Part shown: positions 20,666-33,926 of the stretch, one piece after another | How the letters are laid out: every line of letters starts with the position of its first letter | Numbering within the stretch: position 1 is the first letter of the stretch | NCBI GenBank assembly: GCA_947478405.1 | Contig: CANJVX010000002.1 | Location: forward strand, 1-64,000 | DNA: 64,000 nucleotides | Source of the DNA: Beijerinckiaceae bacterium | GTDB taxonomy: Bacteria; Pseudomonadota; Alphaproteobacteria; Rhizobiales; Beijerinckiaceae | Reading direction: 5' to 3' | Notes under the pieces: model-generated | What the model was told of the DNA's origin: nothing | The model's input: the letters and a program-made list of their open reading frames with translations, nothing else | Database searches by the model: none | Translations under genes and position numbers: made by a program

Positions 20666-23600
20666 ATGACCTATTGTGAACTCGCCGTCACAACCAATTT
20701 CTCCTTCCTGCGCGGGGCTTCGCATCCTGAAGAAATGGTGGGGCGTGCGGCAGAGCTGGGGCTGTCTGGCATTGGTATTGCCGATCGCAATTCACTCGCT
20801 GGCGTGGTGCGCGCCCATGTCTTTGCGCGCGAGAACAAAGATAAAATCGGTGCGCTGCGCCTGGCCATCGGAACGCGCCTCGTCTTTGCTGACGGCACGC
20901 CCGATCTTCTCGCATATCCGCAAGATCGCGCGGCTTATGGGCGGCTCTCGCGGCTTCTCACGCGCGGCAATCTGCGCGGCTCCAAGGGTCATTGCATCCT
21001 CCATCTCGATGATCTCGCCGATCATGCCGAGGGCCTGCAATTTGCCCTCATGCCCGGCCCCTGCCCTGACGACACCGTCACGCAGCTGAAAGAGATCGTT
21101 CCCAAGCGCCTTTGGATAGCTGCCCACATGACCTATGGGCGGGCCATGCGCCGCGATCTCATCGCGCGCTTTGATTTTGCCGCGCGCCATCGCCTGCCAC
21201 TCATCGCCACCAATGATGTGCATATGCATGATGTGGCGCGCCGCCCGCTAGCCGACATTCTCGCCTGCACACGCGAAGGCGTGACCATTGACACAGCCGG
21301 GCGACGCCTTGCCGCCAATGCCGAGCGCCATTTGAAAACACCACGCGAAATGGCACGCATTTTCCGTGAGGCGCCAGAGGCGATCATCGAGACGCGACGC
21401 TTTCTCGACGGGCTGCATTTTTCACTCGACGAACTGGCCTATGAATATCCCGATGAATTGCGCGAAGGCTTTGCCAATGAGCAAGAAGCACTGACACATT
21501 TTGCCTGGGAAGGCGCGCGCTTTCGCTATCCCGATGGTGTGCCAGACAGAATAGCGCAGACCATCCGCTATGAACTGAATCTTGTCGCACAAATGCGCTA
21601 TGCCGCTTATTTTTTGACCGTCCATGACATTGTGCGCTTCGCGCGTGGGCGCGGGATTCTGTGTCAGGGGCGCGGCTCGGCGGCCAATTCCACCATTTGT
21701 TTTTGTCTAGGCATTACCGAGGTTGATCCGACCAAACATGATCTGCTCTTCGAGCGCTTCATCTCGCCCGAGCGCAAAGAGCCGCCCGATATCGATGTCG
21801 ATTTCGAGCACGAGCGGCGCGAAGAAGTCATGCAATATATTTATACCCGCTATGGCCGTTTGCATGCGGGCCTGACTGCAACAGTCATTTCCTATCGCGC
21901 GCGCTCGGCCATTCGCGATGTCGCCAAAGCCTTCGGCTTTTCGGAAGATGTCATCACGGCGCTGACGGGCACGATCTGGGGTTGGTGGTCAGGCGACGTG
22001 GACGAGCAAGAGGTGCGGCGCATCGGCTTTGATCCTGATGAGCCGCGCCTGCGTCAGGCTCTGAAACTCGCCGATGAGCTCACCGGCTTTCCTCGCCACC
22101 TCTCGCAGCATACCGGTGGCTTTGTCATCACGCGCGCGCGGCTTGATGAAGTCGTGCCTGTCGCCCATGCTGCCATGGAAGATCGCACGACGATTGAATG
22201 GGACAAGGATGATCTCGATTCACTGGGCATTTTGAAGATCGATGTTTTGGCGCTGGGCATGCTGTCGTGCCTGCGCAAAGGCTTTGATCTGCTGCGAGAT
22301 CATTATGGTCAGGAACTCACACTGGCCACGATCCCCTCTGAAGAGCCCTGCGTTTATGACATGATTTCGCGCGCCGATACGATTGGTGTGTTCCAGATTG
22401 AGAGCCGCGCGCAAATGTCCATGCTGCCGCGCCTCAAGCCGCGGGCCTTTTACGATCTCGTCATTGAAGTCGCTATTGTGCGCCCCGGCCCCATTCAAGG
22501 CGATATGGTGCATCCCTATTTGCGTCGCCGTCAGGGATTGGAGAAAGTCTCTTATCCCTCGAAAGAACTCGAAGCCGTGCTGGGCAAAACGCTCGGCGTG
22601 CCGCTGTTTCAAGAACAGGCGATGAAGATTGCCATTGTCGCAGCCGGCTTCACGCCCTCAGAGGCCGATCAATTGCGCCGCGCCATGGCGACCTTCAAAA
22701 AGGTCGGCACGATTGGCACCTTCCGCACCAAAATGGTCGAGGGCATGGCCGCACGCGGCTATCAGCGCGCATTTGCCGAAGCCTGTTTCCGCCAGATCGA
22801 GGGTTTTGGCACCTATGGCTTTCCTGAAAGCCACGCCGCCTCTTTTGCCCTGCTCGTCTATGCGTCTGCCTGGATGAAATGCCGCTATCCGGATGTCTTT
22901 GCCTGTGCGCTTTTGAATTCGCAGCCCATGGGCTTTTATGCACCCGCCCAAATTATCCGCGATGCGCGTGAACATGGTGTTGAAATGCGTGAAGTAGACA
23001 TCAACCATTCGCATTGGGACAATACACTTGAGGCCGAAGAGACGCGCATAACGCAGCTCAATTCCAGACATGAAAGCCAGCGCGCGCATCTGCGTGGCAC
23101 GCATGCCATCCGCATCGGATTGCGGCAGGTGAAAGGCCTGCGCGAAGCTGACATGCATGCGCTCGTCGACAAGCGCGGGCGTGGCTATGACAGCGTACGC
23201 GATCTGTGGCTGCGCACCGACCTTTCGCCATCCGTGCTCGAACATCTGGCCCAGGCCGATGCCTTCCGCTCCATAGGCCTCGACCGGCGCGATGCGATCT
23301 GGGCGGTGCGCGGCTTGAACCGCGCGGGCGACAAGGATGATCTGCCACTCTTTGCCGCCGCGCGCGCCCACGAGATCGAGCCTGATGCGCATCTGCCACC
23401 CATGCCGCCGGGCGAACATGTGGTGGAAGATTATCGCCACCTCTCCTTGTCGCTGAAGGCGCATCCCGTGTCTTTCCTGCGCCATGAACTCGATCGGCGC
23501 CGCATTTTGCGCGCGGCCGATCTCGAACATGTGCCAATGCCCAACAGCCAAACGCGCCTCCCCTCGTGGAAATTGCCGCTGGTCACGGTCGCTGGCCTTG

Positions 23601-24007
23601 TGCTGGTGCGCCAGCGTCCAGGCACGGCAAAAGGTGTTCTCTTCATGACACTGGAAGATGAAACGGGTGTCGCCAATGCGATTATCTGGCCGAAAATTTT
23701 CGAGGCGCAGCGCGCCATTGTTATCGGCGCGCGCTTTGTGGCGATCAGAGGCCATGTGCAGAATGAGGCGGGCGTGATTCATGTCATCGCCGAACATTGC
23801 GAAGATCTGACGCCCATGCTGGCTTTGCTGTCACGCCAGGGCGCCGATATTTCCAGCCTCGCGCGGGCCGATGAAGTGCGCCGTCCGCAATCTCGTGAGA
23901 AGAGCAAGCCCGCACCCCATCTCGACCTGCCTGAGGCGCCCCTTGCGCTGGATGAAAATCTCATCATCACCCGCCAAGTCTTGCCGCGCGGACGCAATTT
24001 CCATTAG
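20666..24007 (+). CDS. dnaE2: Error-prone DNA polymerase DnaE2
   Basis: C-family DNA polymerase of 1113 residues, the synthetic subunit of the SOS mutasome. Order: PHP domain (about 1-270; TNFSFLRGASHPEEMV start, IADRNSLAGVVRA), palm with the catalytic acid motif PPDIDVDFEHER (about residues 372-383) and GRGSAANS (about 335-342), fingers, tandem helix-hairpin-helix region, and a C-terminal OB fold (LVTVAGLVLVRQRPG). The length equals other DnaE2 proteins and no frameshift is seen. It is probably co-transcribed with imuAB under LexA. Confidence 0.95.
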   Translation: MTYCELAVTTNFSFLRGASHPEEMVGRAAELGLSGIGIADRNSLAGVVRAHVFARENKDKIGALRLAIGTRLVFADGTPDLLAYPQDRAAYGRLSRLLTRGNLRGSKGHCILHLDDLADHAEGLQFALMPGPCPDDTVTQLKEIVPKRLWIAAHMTYGRAMRRDLIARFDFAARHRLPLIATNDVHMHDVARRPLADILACTREGVTIDTAGRRLAANAERHLKTPREMARIFREAPEAIIETRRFLDGLHFSLDELAYEYPDELREGFANEQEALTHFAWEGARFRYPDGVPDRIAQTIRYELNLVAQMRYAAYFLTVHDIVRFARGRGILCQGRGSAANSTICFCLGITEVDPTKHDLLFERFISPERKEPPDIDVDFEHERREEVMQYIYTRYGRLHAGLTATVISYRARSAIRDVAKAFGFSEDVITALTGTIWGWWSGDVDEQEVRRIGFDPDEPRLRQALKLADELTGFPRHLSQHTGGFVITRARLDEVVPVAHAAMEDRTTIEWDKDDLDSLGILKIDVLALGMLSCLRKGFDLLRDHYGQELTLATIPSEEPCVYDMISRADTIGVFQIESRAQMSMLPRLKPRAFYDLVIEVAIVRPGPIQGDMVHPYLRRRQGLEKVSYPSKELEAVLGKTLGVPLFQEQAMKIAIVAAGFTPSEADQLRRAMATFKKVGTIGTFRTKMVEGMAARGYQRAFAEACFRQIEGFGTYGFPESHAASFALLVYASAWMKCRYPDVFACALLNSQPMGFYAPAQIIRDAREHGVEMREVDINHSHWDNTLEAEETRITQLNSRHESQRAHLRGTHAIRIGLRQVKGLREADMHALVDKRGRGYDSVRDLWLRTDLSPSVLEHLAQADAFRSIGLDRRDAIWAVRGLNRAGDKDDLPLFAAARAHEIEPDAHLPPMPPGEHVVEDYRHLSLSLKAHPVSFLRHELDRRRILRAADLEHVPMPNSQTRLPSWKLPLVTVAGLVLVRQRPGTAKGVLFMTLEDETGVANAIIWPKIFEAQRAIVIGARFVAIRGHVQNEAGVIHVIAEHCEDLTPMLALLSRQGADISSLARADEVRRPQSREKSKPAPHLDLPEAPLALDENLIITRQVLPRGRNFH

Positions 24008-27585: not shown

Positions 27586-28524
27586 TTGAATACGCTCATC
27601 CTCTCCCATCGCGATTGTCTGGACCATGATATGGGGCCCGGCCATCCCGAGCGGCCCGACCGCGTGCGGGTGATCGAGCGCATTCTCGAACATGAGCGCT
27701 TTCAGACGCTGCTGCGCGACGGGGCTCCTCTGGGCACGCGCGAGCAGATTTTGCGGGTTCATCCGGAAGCCCATCTGCGCCAGATCGAGGATAACATCCC
27801 CCATCAAGGCCTTGTGCACCTGGACGGCGATACCAGCCTGTCACCCGGCACATTCGAAGCAGCGCTACGCTCGGTGGGAGGTGCCTGTCTGGCGGTGGAT
27901 GAAGTCATGGCGCGCAAGGTCGACAATGCTTTTGTCGCCACACGCCCGCCCGGCCATCATGCGGAAATCGCCACCGCCATGGGCTTTTGCTTTTTCAACA
28001 ATGCCGCCATTGCCGCGCGCCATGCACGCGAAGTGCATGGCGCCGAGCGCGTTGCGATCATGGATTTCGATGTGCATCACGGCAATGGAACGCAGGATAT
28101 TTTCTGGAACGATCCGCATGTGCTCTATGCGTCCACCCATGAAATGCCGCTCTATCCGGGCACCGGCGCATTGAATGAAACGGGCGAACACAACAACATT
28201 TGCAATGCGCCTTTGTCGGCGGGCGATGACGGTGCCCATTTCAAACAGGCGATGAACACGCGCATCCTGCCAGCGCTTGAGGCTTTCTCACCCGATCTTG
28301 TCATCATCTCTGCAGGCTTTGATGCCCACGCGCGCGACCCGATTGCCAATATTAATTTGGTCGAAAGCGATTTCGCTTGGGCAACAGGCAAGCTGATGGA
28401 GATTGCCGAACGCAAAAGTGGCGGGCGGATTTTATCCCTGCTCGAAGGCGGCTACGATCTGGAAGCACTCGCACGATCAGCAGCCGCCCATGTGATGATG
28501 CTGGCGGGTATGGCCGGGCGGTAA
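27586..28524 (+). CDS. Histone deacetylase family protein (acetylpolyamine amidohydrolase-like)
   Basis: A zinc-dependent deacetylase of the arginase/HDAC fold, probably acting on small acetylated amines rather than histones. 312 residues, start codon TTG/ATG region at 27586 before MNTLILSHRDCLDHDMGPGHPE. The active-site signature is clear: RPPGHHAE (the two His), DFDVHHGNGT (zinc Asp/His), SAGFDAHARDP and the C-terminal LEGGYDLE loop. Stand-alone gene between the Ldt and aroC genes. Confidence 0.92.
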   Translation: MNTLILSHRDCLDHDMGPGHPERPDRVRVIERILEHERFQTLLRDGAPLGTREQILRVHPEAHLRQIEDNIPHQGLVHLDGDTSLSPGTFEAALRSVGGACLAVDEVMARKVDNAFVATRPPGHHAEIATAMGFCFFNNAAIAARHAREVHGAERVAIMDFDVHHGNGTQDIFWNDPHVLYASTHEMPLYPGTGALNETGEHNNICNAPLSAGDDGAHFKQAMNTRILPALEAFSPDLVIISAGFDAHARDPIANINLVESDFAWATGKLMEIAERKSGGRILSLLEGGYDLEALARSAAAHVMMLAGMAGR

Positions 28525-28566: not shown

Positions 28567-29679
28567 CTATTGCTCGAATGGCCAAGCGCGCGGAACGCCA
28601 ACTTGCGCGCGGTGGCGCATCATCGCGTCGGCCAGAACAATCGCCATCATCGCTTCACCCACGGGGACGCCGCGAATACCAACGCACGGATCATGCCGAC
28701 CCTTGGTGCGCAATTCGACTTCTGCCCCCGTACGATCGACCGAAAGGCGCGGCGTGAGAATGGACGAGGTCGGCTTCACTGCAAAACGCGCGACAACCGG
28801 CTGGCCGGTCGAAATGCCGCCCAAAATGCCGCCCGCATGGTTGGACAAAAAAACAGGTCTGCCATCGGCACCCATGCGCATTTCATCCGCATTGTCTTCG
28901 CCGCTCAGTGCCGCGGACGCCATACCATCGCCAATCTCGACGCCTTTCACAGCATTGATCGACATCAGCGCAGAAGCCAGTTCGGCATCGAGCTTGCCAT
29001 AGATGGGAGCGCCCCAACCGGCTGGCACGCCTTCGGCAACCAGTTCAATCACCGCCCCGCAGGATGAGCCCGCTTTGCGCACGCCATCGAGATAGGCTTC
29101 CCAATCAACTGCTGCTTTCGCATCGGGGCAGAAGAAGGGATTGTTGTTCACTTCGTTCCAGTCGAAGCGCGAACGATCAACCTTGTGTGGGCCCATTTGA
29201 ACAAGCGCACCACGGATCGTCACGCCGGAAATGATTTTGCGCGCAATGCCGGCAGCCGCAACACGCATGGCGGTTTCGCGCGCAGATGAACGCCCACCAC
29301 CGCGATAATCGCGGATGCCATATTTCGCATCATAAGTGAAATCGGCATGGCCCGGCCGATAGGATTTGGCGATCTCGCCATAATCTTTCGAGCGCTGATC
29401 GACATTGTCGATCAGTAGGCCGATGGAAGTTCCAGTCGTCACCATGGTGCCAGAGCCGTCATCCATAACGCCCGACAGGATCTTCACCTGATCAGGCTCC
29501 TGACGCTGCGTGGTGAAGCGCGACTGGCCAGGTCGACGCTTTTCAAGCCAGACCTGCAGGTCTTCAGGCGCCAAAGGAATGAGCGGCGGCACGCCATCGA
29601 CAATACAGCCAATAGCGGCCCCATGGCTCTCGCCATAAGTCGTGACGCGGAAAAGGTGACCGAATGTATTGTGCGACAT
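28567..29679 (-). CDS. aroC: Chorismate synthase
   Basis: Final shikimate-pathway enzyme: EPSP to chorismate, with reduced FMN. 370 residues from ATG 29679 ([20 protein letters not shown]); the frame is open upstream through a repeat and that part is not protein-like. The three family signatures are seen: [14 protein letters not shown] at the N-terminus, [17 protein letters not shown]-type motif in the middle ([13 protein letters not shown]) and [10 protein letters not shown] near the end. Complete. Confidence 0.96.
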
Positions 29680-29730: not shown

Positions 29731-29822
29731 AGTGCGCGCCCCCCTCAAGGGGGAGGGGGAGGGGGAGCGACACGCGCAATCAAACTCCCTCCCCCTTGAG
29801 GGGGGGGTGGGGTGGGGGTCGA
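29731..29822. repeat. C/G-rich inverted repeat between aroC and the NRPS gene
   Basis: Arms cccccctcaaggggga and tcccccttgagggggggg enclose a spacer. It belongs to the same kind of intergenic palindrome as 49484-49596 and 56129-56180. It probably folds in the mRNA between two same-strand genes. Confidence 0.6.
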
Positions 29823-29867: not shown

Positions 29868-32800
29868 CTATTTTCCGGAAAATTCCAACGCCACAGCGGG
29901 AACAGCCGGTGAGCCAATCCATTCTGTATGGGGGGGGATATGCTCGCCCTTCATGACAACGGTCAACGGACCCAGACGCGCGAAATCGCCGATTTGCGTG
30001 TCGTACAGCACTGTTGCATTGGCGCCCACGGTCACACCATTGCCCACCTGAATCCGGCCGACCTTCATCACGCGGTCTTCATACAGATGCGTCTGCAAGG
30101 CGGAGCTGCCGTTCAGCACAACGAAATCTCCGACCGTCACGCAATCGAATTCCGTGATGTCGGTCATGTTCATGTAAACACCCTTACCTATCTTGGTGCC
30201 AAACATACGCAGCACCATCGGCAAGAAGGGCGTGCCGCGCAAATGCTCAATCAGCACTTTGCCAGCCAGCCCCCAGTAGAGAACGGCCACCGCTTCTGTG
30301 CGCATGGCCCACCACGACCACATCGGCATGACGATCGGTTCATATCGCCCCATGGTCACCCATTTGAATACAACAACAACCAACGTCACAGCGACCGAGA
30401 TGAAAGTGGAGGCAAGGACGAAATTGACCCCCAAAGAATACCATTCACCCGCAAGAAGATCCGCGCCAAAATATTCTACCGCCCAAGTGCCGAAGGTGAT
30501 GAAGAGCATGGTCGAGAGCGACACATGCACGGCTTCAAACAAAGCGCGCGCGGCCTTCTTCCAAAACGGTGGCTCATAGGTCCAGTTTTCCGATAGAGCA
30601 TCGAATTTCTGGCGCACGGGTAATTTGATCGGCGGCGATCCAAACCATGTGTCGTTCGGGCTCATCTCATGATTTTCAGGCGGCTTTGATTTGATGCCAA
30701 TCAGCGCGCCTCTGGGAATGATCGATCCCGGCGGCACTACTGCATCATTGCCGACAAACACATTGGCGCCAGTCTTAACCTTTTTCAAAACCATCCATCC
30801 ACGCCGAATGTCTTCGTCGCCCAGCATGACTTCATCGGCGATGAAATTCTTCTCGCCGATGTCCACAAGATCGAAGCGGCCTGCCAGATTGGTGGAGATT
30901 TCTGCGCCCTTGCCAATCTTGGCACCCATCAAGCGATACCAGGCGCGCATATAGATTGTGGCGAAAAGCGAGGTCAGCGTTTCCAGCGTGATTTCGGTGG
31001 CAAGCGCCACCACCCACATGCGGAAATAAAACCAGCTATGGACCGAATAGCGACCCTCTTTCACGCGCGGCAAAACAATCCAGCGCACACAAGCAATAAA
31101 GGCCACTGTGACCAGCACCATCACAAAGGCCGTGGGCCAAGCCAGCAGCGGTATCGAGGCCATATAGATGACACGATCAAGCGAGGCGGTGCCGACAAAT
31201 TCATCCAGCGTGTTAAAAAACCAGAAAGCCGGGAAGATCGGCAACATGCCAATCGGCGGGATCGACAGCATGGCCACGGTGTAACAAAAAGCCTGCAAGG
31301 CACGCTGCCAAGGCGTTGTCTGCGGAAACTCATCCATGACGGATGGATCGTTCACGCCGACCTTGCGTCCGGGGCTTCCATCCCAGATTTCGAAATCAGG
31401 AATTTGCGTGCCGGCCGGAACCGCGGTGAGATCTTTCATCTCCGCGCCATCGCCCAGACGCACACCGCCCTCAAGCACACAGGACGAGCCTATATAGGCA
31501 TCCCTGCCAATGTAAACCGGTTCAATGATCAGCTCATTGCCCACCACGCGAGCATTGGTGATTTCGGTCTTGCCGCCTACACAACAGCCTTCGCCGAAAG
31601 TGATGAGATCAATGGCGCCGGAATCAAAGTCACTGATGATCGCGTCTTCGCCCACCTGTGCGCCGATGGCGCGCAGATAAATGCGCATCAGGGGCGAGGC
31701 CTGAAACCATTTGAGATGCGTCAGACCGATGAGTCTCTGCGCCAGCCACCAGCGGAAATAATAAACGCCCCACAAAGGATAGCGGCCGACCCTGGTGCGC
31801 CCGAGGATCAGCCACTTGCCGACAATCGCCAGAATGATCGTGAAAATCGTGATGCAGACATAGACACCAAAGAGCGAGATAATTTCTGAAAAAATGCTGG
31901 CATCCGGGCTGGTCAGCAGCATGTAGGAAACAAACACGCCCAGCCATTGCGCCGTCATCAGCGCAATGATGAAGGGCAGCACAATTGCCTGCGCCAGACC
32001 GCACAAGAAACGCCGCGCAAAGGGCGGCGGCACAAAAGACAGATCCCGCACCGCTGCGACATGGGCGAATTTCGTGTCCAGCATTTCGCCCAGAGCGAGC
32101 AGATTACGCGTGTCATAGATATCTTGCAGTGTGATGCCGGCCAGCGCCGGGGACTGGCGCACCAGCGACACAAAACGCGCAGCCAGCAGCGAGTGGCCGC
32201 CAAGATCGGTAAAGAAATCGGCATCAAAGGGAATGGCCTGCGGCGGCAACACGGCCTTGGCTGCGGCCAACAAAATGGCTTCCGTGGGCGTGCGCGGATC
32301 TTCCTGCTCTTCGGTGGTCGCTGTGCTTGTCAGCTGAGCGCGCTTGAGCTCGTTACGATTGATCTTTCCGGAGGAGAGGCGTGGCAGCTCGTCCACTTCC
32401 TCGAATCGTCCTGGCACCATGTAGGCCGGCAGACGCTCGCGCAAAATGGTGCGCAGATTGCGCGCATCAATCGTCACTTGCGCGGCTTTGTCAGCCACCA
32501 GAAAGGCGACGAGTTCATCGACCTCCTGTTCTTTGCGCATAACAACAGCCGCCTGCACAATGCCGGGAATATCGGTGAGCTTGGCTTCGATCTCGCCGAG
32601 CTCCACCCGGAAGCCACGGATCTTCACCTGATCATCAATGCGACCATGGAAAGACAATTCGCCATTGGCTTCCATCACCACGGCATCGCCCGAGCGATAG
32701 AGCACGGGATCATCGCCATCGGCGGCGAAAGGATTGGCGATGAATTTTTCCGCTGTGAGTGGCGTACGGTTAAGATAGCCCTTGGCCACACCCGGCCCGC

Positions 32801-33926
32801 CAATCAGCAATTCACCCTCGATGCCACGCGCCACAAGATTGAGAGCATCATCGACAACATAGCAGCTGTAATTGGCAATCGGCTTGCCAATGGTGATCGC
32901 TTCACCAGGACGAACCTCGGTAGCTGTTGCCACGACAGTGGCTTCGGTTGGGCCATATGTGTTGAAAATCTTGCGGCCCGGCCGCGACCAACGCTGTGGC
33001 ACAGACGGCGGACAGGCTTCGCCCCCCAGCAGGATCAAACGGATCGAGGCGATATCGCGCGGCAACATGGCAAGAAGTGTCGGCACAGTATCGAGCACAG
33101 TGATGCCAGCTTCATCCATCACGGCAGGTAGATTATCCGTCTCGCCCATAATCTTGGGTGTCGCAACAAAGAGCGCCGCGCCCACAAGATAGGGGATCCA
33201 GATTTCTTCCATCGACAGATCGAAAGCCACAGATGCGCCTTGGAAGACGACATCATCAGCGCCAATGCCATAGAGCGCATTGGCCGAGCGCAGATAATGG
33301 CAAATGTTGCGGTGGGTGATGACAATGCCCTTGGGCATGCCGGTCGAGCCCGACGTATAGATCATGTAGGCGGGCATGTCGGGCCGTACGCCCAGCGCGC
33401 GCGCATCGACAATTGACGCATCATCGAGATTGTCGAGGTCATACGCGCCGACAATCGGGCACGGCATGTTGAGTGTCAGATTGCCAGCATGAAAATCATC
33501 CGACAGAAGCAGTTTGGCGCTCGCATCCTGCAAACACACAGCAATGCGTTCCGGCGGTGCGTCCGCATCGAAGGGCAACCAGGCAGCGCCCGTCTTGGTG
33601 ATGGCAATTTGCGCGACCAGAAGATCAACACCGCGCGGCATCCAAAGGCCCACAACGTCGCCGGGCCTGACACCACGCCGCAACAGACCGCGCGCAACGG
33701 ACGTCGCCGCGCGATCCACTTCGGCATAAGTGAAATGATGACCCTCGACCATATGGCAGGGATCATCAGGCATGCGCGCGACGGTGGCGGCAAAAATCTC
33801 GGGCAGCACTTCGTCACGAATGAAATCATCGCGCTTTGGCCCGCGCAGAATGGCGGGAACAAAGGCAGCGTCATCGGGGAGAAGATCTTGCGGGCCGTGG
33901 GTCATGTCGCGGATGGGCTGACGCAT
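29868..33926 (-). CDS. Pls/PosA family membrane nonribosomal peptide synthetase
   Basis: A 1352-residue single-protein synthetase of the epsilon-poly-lysine synthetase type. Order: adenylation domain about 20-530 (A3 [10 protein letters not shown] 191-200; A4 FDLSMEE 235-241; A5 YGPTE 324-328; [20 protein letters not shown]; invariant Lys521 in SSGKINR), carrier domain about 550-620 with Ser579 in LGGHSLL, then six hydrophobic segments (about 641-672, 678-708, 876-905, 919-953, 1131-1155, 1163-1193) and three left-handed beta-helix modules (about 755-850, 1000-1080, 1240-1335). There is no classical condensation or thioesterase domain; in this family the tandem C-terminal modules do chain elongation. 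Aligned by eye to GrsA, the pocket reads D236 L237 E240 D279 L299 G301 T323 V331 V332 K521, favouring a basic amino acid (inference). ATG 33905 is an alternative start. No phosphopantetheinyl transferase gene is nearby. Confidence 0.9.

What the first reader, a model, noticed from the sequence alone, without database searches (positions are those of the whole stretch)
29868..33926. Pls/PosA-type NRPS that may make a cationic homopoly-amino acid
Seen: an A domain with all core motifs, a carrier domain with Ser579, six membrane segments and three beta-helix modules, and no condensation or thioesterase domain. Known: this architecture is that of epsilon-poly-L-lysine synthetase and related homopolymer synthetases, mostly studied in actinomycetes. 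Inference: aligned by eye with GrsA, two acidic pocket residues (E240, D279) and a glycine at the 301 position suggest lysine, ornithine, diaminobutyrate or a similar basic amino acid. The gene stands alone between aroC and a phosphatase gene, with no export, tailoring or PPTase gene beside it. Polymer synthesis in an alphaproteobacterium would be little described.
Basis: partly seen in the sequence, partly recalled or inferred. Interest (0 to 1): 0.8.

Follow-up and report, generated by a model that had tools for sequence, protein, structure and literature searches.

The report
Alphaproteobacterial Pls/PosA-type poly(amino acid) synthetase
A gene in an alphaproteobacterium encodes a membrane enzyme of the known polylysine/polyornithine synthetase family; it probably strings one positively charged amino acid into a chain, and its relatives often sit at one fixed place between household genes across the bacterium's family.

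Summary
Window 29868-33926 (-) encodes a 1352-aa A-T-(TM pair, beta-helix)x3 protein that passes NCBIfam's Pls/PosA model (598 bits, cut-off 423). Among solved A domains it is closest to PosA, the delta-poly-L-ornithine synthetase of Acinetobacter baumannii. Pocket code: D-L-E-D-L-G-T-V-V-K. PosA's Asp (alpha-amine) and Glu (side-chain amine) are kept and a second acid, D279, is added, so a basic diamino acid is very likely (ornithine first, lysine next; unproven). The 2023 PosA paper already lists nearly this code, as a distinct signature, in Archaea, Rhizobia and Methylobacterium. Not found in the papers searched: in the GTDB family 139 of 199 genomes (34 of 43 genera) carry the polymerisation domain; 30 of 33 readable one-per-genus copies have the DLED code, 18 of these 30 lying between fabI/phosphatase and aroC. 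In 15 of 28 genomes without it those flanks lie within 3 kb, with no pls remnant. dN/dS is about 0.1. This suggests a largely inherited physiological polymer rather than a patchy antibiotic. H1280, the only histidine in residues 545-1352 invariant over 26 synthetases, is a candidate catalytic residue. Substrate, product and role are untested.

The parts
29868..33926 (-). whole gene, Pls/PosA-family synthetase, 1352 aa plus stop
   Evidence: start codon not settled
32772..33794 (-). adenylation domain, large lobe (residues 45-385)
   Evidence: PF00501, 270 bits; model matches 8g98 with rmsd 1.8, 45% identity
32364..32594 (-). adenylation domain, C-terminal lobe (residues 445-521), holds K521
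   Evidence: PF13193; K521 invariant in 37 of 37
33207..33209 (-). E240, pocket acid equivalent to PosA E221 (side-chain amine)
   Evidence: invariant in 37 of 37
33090..33092 (-). D279, second pocket acid, at PosA H260
   Evidence: invariant in 37 of 37
32091..32249 (-). carrier (T) domain, residues 560-612; Ser579 codon at 32190-32192
   Evidence: PF00550 21.9 bits, cut-off 20.8; Ser579 in 26 of 26
29904..31994 (-). polymerisation domain (residues 645-1341)
   Evidence: TIGR02353, profile 2-695 of 695
31806..32021 (-). TM pair 1 (residues 636-671 and 678-707)
   Evidence: model helices; hydropathy
31074..31313 (-). TM pair 2 (residues 872-911 and 918-951)
   Evidence: model helices; hydropathy
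30351..30566 (-). TM pair 3 (residues 1121-1158 and 1162-1192)
   Evidence: model helices; only the second of the two passes the hydropathy scan
30063..30095 (-). [11 protein letters not shown], residues 1278-1288 in the third beta-helix; Q1278, H1280, E1283, K1288 invariant
   Evidence: 26 of 26; role inferred
28567..29679 (-). aroC, downstream neighbour (start inferred from the motif MSHNTFG inside the longer ORF)
   Evidence: PF01264
34102..34707 (-). histidine-phosphatase-superfamily gene, upstream neighbour
   Evidence: PF00300
34748..35704 (-). fabI-type enoyl-ACP reductase gene (name by homology), next upstream
   Evidence: PF13561

Best explanation
The gene encodes a membrane-bound, stand-alone isopeptide homopolymer synthetase of the Pls/PosA family. 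The A domain binds a basic diamino acid (D236 holds the alpha-amine; E240, helped by D279 and T323, the side-chain amine), adenylates it and loads it on the 4'-phosphopantetheine arm of Ser579, which is attached by a PPTase encoded elsewhere. The TM/triple beta-helix domain repeatedly joins the carrier-bound carboxyl to the side-chain amine of the growing chain at the membrane; the third beta-helix (Q1278/H1280/E1283/K1288) is the likeliest catalytic site. Shown by tools: family, domain order, pocket residues, conservation, site in the genome. Inferred: diamino substrate (L-ornithine about 0.45, lysine about 0.2, diaminobutyrate about 0.1, other about 0.25), polymer formation, iso-linkage, catalytic site. 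The polymer is probably a long-standing physiological product of this bacterial family.
For: TIGR02353 598.4 bits, cut-off 423.1, nearly the whole model. Gap-free pocket alignment with PosA; modelled A domain on 8g98: rmsd 1.8, TM (target) 0.95, 45% identity. D236, L237, E240 and D279 invariant in 37 of 37 relatives. DLED clade (26 rows) 100/100 with PosA next, 100/99, in a 34-row tree. PosA with E221A or D217A had no detectable activity (PMC10522769). Sfp-type PPTase in the genome. Strong purifying selection. Six TM helices and three beta-helices.
Against: No biochemical evidence for this clade. PosA's S313, whose loss cost 183-fold there, is V332 here, as in the lysine enzyme 7wew; H260 is D279 and M218 is L237, so ornithine is not a straight transfer. 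Rows on long branches or of deviating composition (L085 = PosA is both) weaken the tree. By E-value the A-T model is matched first by EntF, LgrA and DhbF, which cover A and T together; 7wew ranks 45th. Hydropathy supports 5 of 6 TM segments. Literature says all three tandem domains are needed in Pls (passage, PMC4668381), so a single catalytic site in the third is only a proposal.
Confidence: 0.8

Rival explanations
1. The substrate is not one of the usual diamino acids: the doubly acidic pocket (E240 + D279) clamps a guanidinium or a doubly charged amino acid such as arginine or a modified lysine/ornithine, giving an undescribed polymer or a single aminoacyl product.
For: D279 is invariant in the clade and absent from the readable codes of the other types seen (DMEH, DAES, DFE[ACHY]). 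In the PosA paper a Bdellovibrionales homologue with another code activated arginine and no known diamino substrate.
Against: Arginine has no ordinary side-chain amine for the isopeptide chemistry. The same paper says that bacitracin synthetase's ornithine A domain carries its acid at this very position, so an acid there fits ornithine too.
Confidence: 0.25
2. Diaminobutyrate, diaminopropionate or beta-lysine is the monomer, as in actinomycete relatives.
For: L237 is bulky, as is the Phe of the DAP/DAB enzymes (PMC10522769). A match to TIGR00238 (lysine 2,3-aminomutase-like) over its cut-off exists in the genome, so beta-lysine is not excluded.
Against: No diaminobutyrate aminotransferase over TIGR00709's cut-off in the 95%-complete assembly (best 132.6 of 401.6 bits). 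The beta-lysine code quoted in the paper is D G E S I S V V N K, unlike this. TIGR00238 also rings in E. coli and C. vibrioides, as expected of the EF-P enzyme EpmB (recalled). DFE-coded rows fall outside the DLED+PosA group.
Confidence: 0.15
3. An NRPS-like enzyme that loads a basic amino acid and transfers it singly to a lipid or envelope acceptor, without polymerising.
For: The C-terminal modules resemble single acyltransferases (CysE, maltose acetyltransferase, VatD, AntD), no TE or exporter is near, and the gene is spread through the family like an envelope trait.
Against: Members that share the whole TIGR02353 domain make polymers (PosA, Pls, PDAP; PMC10522769, PMC4668381), and the motif Q-x-H-x-x-E-x4-K is common to the DLED clade, PosA and the other types.
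Confidence: 0.1
4. A horizontally acquired antibiotic gene without lasting role, as expected for an NRPS.
For: Copies occur on Azospirillum, Rhizobium and other plasmids. Three of 34 genus representatives carry other pocket types, likely separate acquisitions. 60 of 199 genomes lack a match. Five of 30 DLED representatives lack both flanks.
Against: Shared flanks across genera (18 of 30 on both sides), dN/dS about 0.1, and distances that follow aroC and fabI about as well as those follow each other (r 0.27, p 0.054, and r 0.35, p 0.009, versus 0.31, p 0.011; 17 genera).
Confidence: 0.15

Closest known systems
PosA, delta-poly-L-ornithine synthetase of Acinetobacter baumannii (PDB 8g95-8g98; PMC10522769)
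   Same: Domain order; D236, E240, G301, T323, V331, K521 of the pocket code; nearest characterised type in the tree; about 42% identity over the whole protein to an A. baumannii homologue with the same DMEHNGTVSK code; single-gene setting.
   Different: L for M218, D for H260, L for N280, V for S313. Substrate and product untested. Syntenic site and spread in an alphaproteobacterial family.
epsilon-Poly-L-lysine synthetase Pls of Streptomyces albulus (A domain PDB 7wew)
   Same: Architecture; D, E, G, T, V, V at pocket positions 1, 3, 6, 7, 8, 9 (alignment).
   Different: A at position 2 there, L here; S at position 4 there, D here; 35% identity in the A domain.
Uncharacterised 'D L E D I G T V T/V/I K' group named in the PosA paper (Archaea, Rhizobia, Methylobacterium and others)
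   Same: Same code but for L299 in place of I; relatives here carry I, L or V at that position and T or S at position 7. This gene belongs with that group.
   Different: The parts read (1-5 of 8) give no substrate, genomic site or family-wide spread.
Diaminobutyrate-type synthetase by context, Streptomyces sp. NBC_01527 plasmid (L087)
   Same: Same architecture and family name.
   Different: DFECLSAVTK code, next to a diaminobutyrate transaminase and an aspartate kinase gene; here neither is beside the gene.

Membership tests
Pls/PosA (TIGR02353) cationic homopoly(amino acid) synthetases | TIGR02353 polymerisation domain over the curated cut-off | tested here: met
   598.4 bits, cut-off 423.1, profile 2-695 of 695
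Pls/PosA (TIGR02353) cationic homopoly(amino acid) synthetases | One amino-acid A domain and one carrier domain, no C or TE domain | tested here: met
   Pfam and TIGR01733 matches, no C/TE match; Ser579
Pls/PosA (TIGR02353) cationic homopoly(amino acid) synthetases | Six TM helices in three pairs, each followed by a soluble (beta-helix) module | tested here: met
   AlphaFold2 model; hydropathy alone finds 5 of 6
Pls/PosA (TIGR02353) cationic homopoly(amino acid) synthetases | Asp and Glu at pocket positions 1 and 3, stated as conserved in the family (PMC10522769) | tested here: met
   D236, E240
Pls/PosA (TIGR02353) cationic homopoly(amino acid) synthetases | Adenylation of a diamino acid and isopeptide homopolymer as product | not testable with these tools
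   needs enzyme assay and LC-MS
delta-Poly-L-ornithine synthetase (PosA type, code DMEHNGTVSK) | PosA's specificity residues M218, T304, S313 | tested here: not met
   L237, T323, V332: one of three kept; hence not filed as a PosA orthologue, though it may still use ornithine
epsilon-Poly-L-lysine synthetase (Pls type, Ala at position 2) | Ala at pocket position 2 | tested here: not met
   L237
Poly-diaminopropionate/diaminobutyrate synthetase (Phe at position 2) | Phe at pocket position 2; monomer genes adjacent | tested here: not met
   L237; no such neighbour; no TIGR00709 match over cut-off in the genome

The most novel reading that the evidence does not exclude
The DLED clade is a distinct subfamily that makes a not yet described cationic isopeptide polymer as a vertically inherited, household-like cell component of a large alphaproteobacterial family (methanotrophs, photoheterotrophs, plant and lichen associates), rather than a strain-specific antibiotic; its A domain uses a second acid (D279), and one catalytic centre, H1280 in the third beta-helix, does the polymerisation while the first two beta-helices are scaffolds.
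Probability: 0.25. Interest if true: 0.7.

Novelty: new member of a known kind. Interest (0 to 1): 0.45.

Why it matters
Homopoly(amino acid) synthetases are studied mainly as antimicrobial producers of actinomycetes, and PosA was reported as the first outside them (PMC10522769). A clade under strong purifying selection, in most of the sampled genomes of one alphaproteobacterial family and often at one site between household genes, makes the open question 'what is the polymer for in the producer?' testable by deletion in culturable relatives (Rhodoblastus, Methylosinus). The few invariant residues of the polymerisation domain, H1280 among them, give direct mutants to test how an NRPS without condensation domain makes peptide bonds.

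Tried and rejected
Diaminobutyrate by genome context: no aminotransferase over the cut-off. Beta-lysine: not excluded, a TIGR00238 match exists. Link with the neighbouring histone-deacetylase-like gene (PF00850, 27586-28524): rejected, since it also follows aroC in 10 of 15 regions without pls. A solved structure of the whole polymerisation domain: none seen; the 50 PDB matches listed of 522 (87 with E <= 0.001) have TM-scores by query length of at most 0.13; viral library, 46 matches, nothing of use. Regulation: promoter scan at chance level (2 found, shuffles 2.3), terminators 9 against 5.2. An RNA element in the pls-aroC gap: z -1.62, not pursued. A literature record of this clade's product: seven searches ran; [quoted passage not shown]

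Limits. PPTase presence rests on a protein search at E <= 1e-5 and misses divergent ones; its association with pls is not corrected for kinship. dS is 0.84-1.06, near saturation.
Full report
WHAT IS THERE. The ORF 29868-33926 on the minus strand codes for 1352 aa. Pfam finds AMP-binding (45-385), AMP-binding_C (445-521), a carrier domain (560-612) and hexapeptide repeats, and no condensation or thioesterase domain. NCBIfam TIGR02353, 'Pls/PosA family non-ribosomal peptide synthetase', matches residues 645-1341 over nearly its full length with 598.4 bits against a cut-off of 423.1. An AlphaFold2 model of residues 535-1352 from 46 related sequences (mean pLDDT 86.7, pTM 0.86) has three pairs of long helices, each followed by a beta-helix stretch. 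A hydropathy scan finds five of the six helices; 1121-1158 does not pass. Foldseek matches of this part in the PDB listing are to single left-handed beta-helix acyltransferases and carbonic anhydrases (best E 4e-5; query TM at most 0.13 in the 50 rows shown), so no solved structure of the whole domain appeared.

THE POCKET. phmmer of residues around the pocket puts PosA (8g95-8g98) first and the epsilon-poly-lysine enzyme 7wew next; the PosA alignment has no gap over 166 residues. The ten-letter code (positions by GrsA, recalled) is D236 L237 E240 D279 L299 G301 T323 V331 V332 K521. PosA reads D M E H N G T V S K (PMC10522769; same code in L085), and 7wew reads D A E S I G T V V in the alignment. 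D217 and E221 of PosA, needed for activity there, are kept. Position 2, which the PosA paper calls the chain-length ruler (Phe for DAP/DAB, Met for Orn, Ala for Lys), is Leu. S313 is Val, as in the lysine enzyme, and His260 is Asp279. The same paper notes that an ornithine A domain of bacitracin synthetase has its acid at that position. So a basic diamino acid is well supported; ornithine is first choice because of the nearest characterised kin and the Leu/Met similarity, not because of identity of pocket. D236, L237, E240 and D279 are invariant in 37 of 37 aligned relatives. The A-T model (mean pLDDT 82.0) fits 8g98 with rmsd 1.8, target TM 0.95 and 45% identity; by E-value, EntF, LgrA and DhbF, which cover A and T together, rank above it, and 7wew ranks 45th.

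RELATIVES. A scan of genome contigs gave 63 loci, 88-94% identical at the top; the nearest carry names such as 'Beijerinckiaceae bacterium' and 'uncultured Rhizobiales bacterium'. In a script over 87 rows (86 loci and the window, one locus being the window's own DNA again), 75 rows begin DLED, 8 have other readable codes and 4 are not readable that far. In a 34-row maximum-likelihood tree the DLED rows (26) form a group with 100/100 support, the A. baumannii row joins next (100/99), then a Sphingomonas plasmid row with DMEH (100/99), then DAES rows, with the DFE rows outside these; the root is by midpoint, and several rows, the A. baumannii one included, are on long branches or of unusual composition.

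SPREAD AND SITE. In the GTDB family of the genome, 139 of 199 genomes (34 of 43 genera) match TIGR02353 at E <= 1e-30, 136 over the cut-off. Over the class, 9 of 289 genomes match, 4 of these from the own family; the five others read DAES (two), DFEH (one), DLED (one), and one is masked. Among one representative for each of the 34 positive genera, 30 read DLED, two DFEA, one DMEH and one is a fragment. Of the 30, 22 have the phosphatase or fabI gene within 1.5 kb upstream on the same strand, 21 have aroC within 3.5 kb downstream, 18 have both and 5 neither. I took 28 of the 60 genomes without a match and located aroC and fabI: in 15 they lie on one strand within 3 kb. All 15 regions were read: the order fabI-(phosphatase)-aroC is kept, 12 with the phosphatase between, and no stretch resembles the pls protein at E <= 1e-5. 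So the gene is a one-gene difference at a conserved site. Over 17 genera, pls distances go with aroC (r 0.27, p 0.054) and fabI (r 0.35, p 0.009) about as those two go with each other (r 0.31, p 0.011). dN/dS against four near relatives is 0.086-0.123, versus 0.050-0.068 for aroC, 0.081-0.145 for the phosphatase and 0.030-0.066 for fabI where computable. Against a purely inherited picture stand the plasmid copies in Azospirillum and Rhizobium, three genera with other types, and 60 genomes without a match.

PARTNERS. The own genome holds one PF01648 match, a 244-aa Sfp-type PPTase on another contig; no separate AcpS was seen, so it cannot be called dedicated to this enzyme. Four carrier-domain matches were found, three in short ORFs and one in this gene, and nine AMP-binding matches. 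Over the 199 genomes a PPTase like this one was found with 107 of 139 pls-bearing genomes and 16 of 60 others (odds ratio 9.2, Fisher p 3.7e-11, not corrected for kinship). By the coordinates, in five genomes (G019, G059, G122, G142, G196) it lies at pls, the upstream cases judged by gene length; it also lies next to pls in L084, L086 and L142.

THE POLYMERISATION DOMAIN. Over 26 sequences (17 DLED, 9 of other types) the invariant residues from 545 to 1352 include one histidine, H1280, in Q-x-H-x-x-E-x4-K of the third beta-helix, together with R1240, E1259, K1326, E1328 and W1336; the first two beta-helices keep mainly glycines and prolines, and D1031 in the second. Left-handed beta-helix acyltransferases use a histidine as base (recalled), so H1280 is a candidate. 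A passage in PMC4668381 says all three tandem domains are essential in Pls; that fits either shared catalysis or scaffolding.

LITERATURE. PMC10522769 was read in parts 1-5 of 8: it names 'D L E D I G T V T/V/I K' in Archaea, Rhizobia, Methylobacterium and others as a unique signature, with no substrate given in those parts. Passages only were seen of PMC8117764, PMC12067966, PMC4668381 and PMC8506220. The seven searches showed no paper on the product of this clade in alphaproteobacteria.

VERDICT. A good member of a known family, in a recognisable but uncharacterised subgroup. The interest lies in the family-wide, site-conserved, purifying-selected gene, which points to a physiological use of a cationic polymer.

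Noticed in passing
window 29739-29805: GC-rich inverted repeat (19-base arms 29739-29757 and 29787-29805) in the gap between pls and aroC; the single strand folds only mildly better than shuffles (z -1.62). Resembles an extragenic palindromic repeat; not seen elsewhere in the window at full length.
   Followed up: partly
L110 and L129: Genomes of the same family with a Pls/PosA-type enzyme of another pocket type (DFEALG[TS]VTK), about 30% identical to the window's and without its flanks: probably separate acquisitions.
   Followed up: partly
L130: Genome of the same family with a PosA-type code (DMEHNGTVSK), 37% identical to the window protein and away from the usual flanks.
   Followed up: no
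L141 and L145: Two genomes of another alphaproteobacterial family carry synthetases with the lysine-like code DAESIGTVIK.
   Followed up: no
window 27586-28524: Histone-deacetylase-superfamily gene (PF00850) that follows aroC in many relatives, with or without pls.
   Followed up: partly
L087 6007-12726: Streptomyces plasmid with a Pls/PosA gene followed by diaminobutyrate transaminase and aspartate kinase genes, a likely poly-diaminobutyrate cluster.
   Followed up: no
window 20666-24007: Long ORF (1113 aa) that by reading looks like an error-prone DNA polymerase of the DnaE2 type; no family search was run on it.
   Followed up: no
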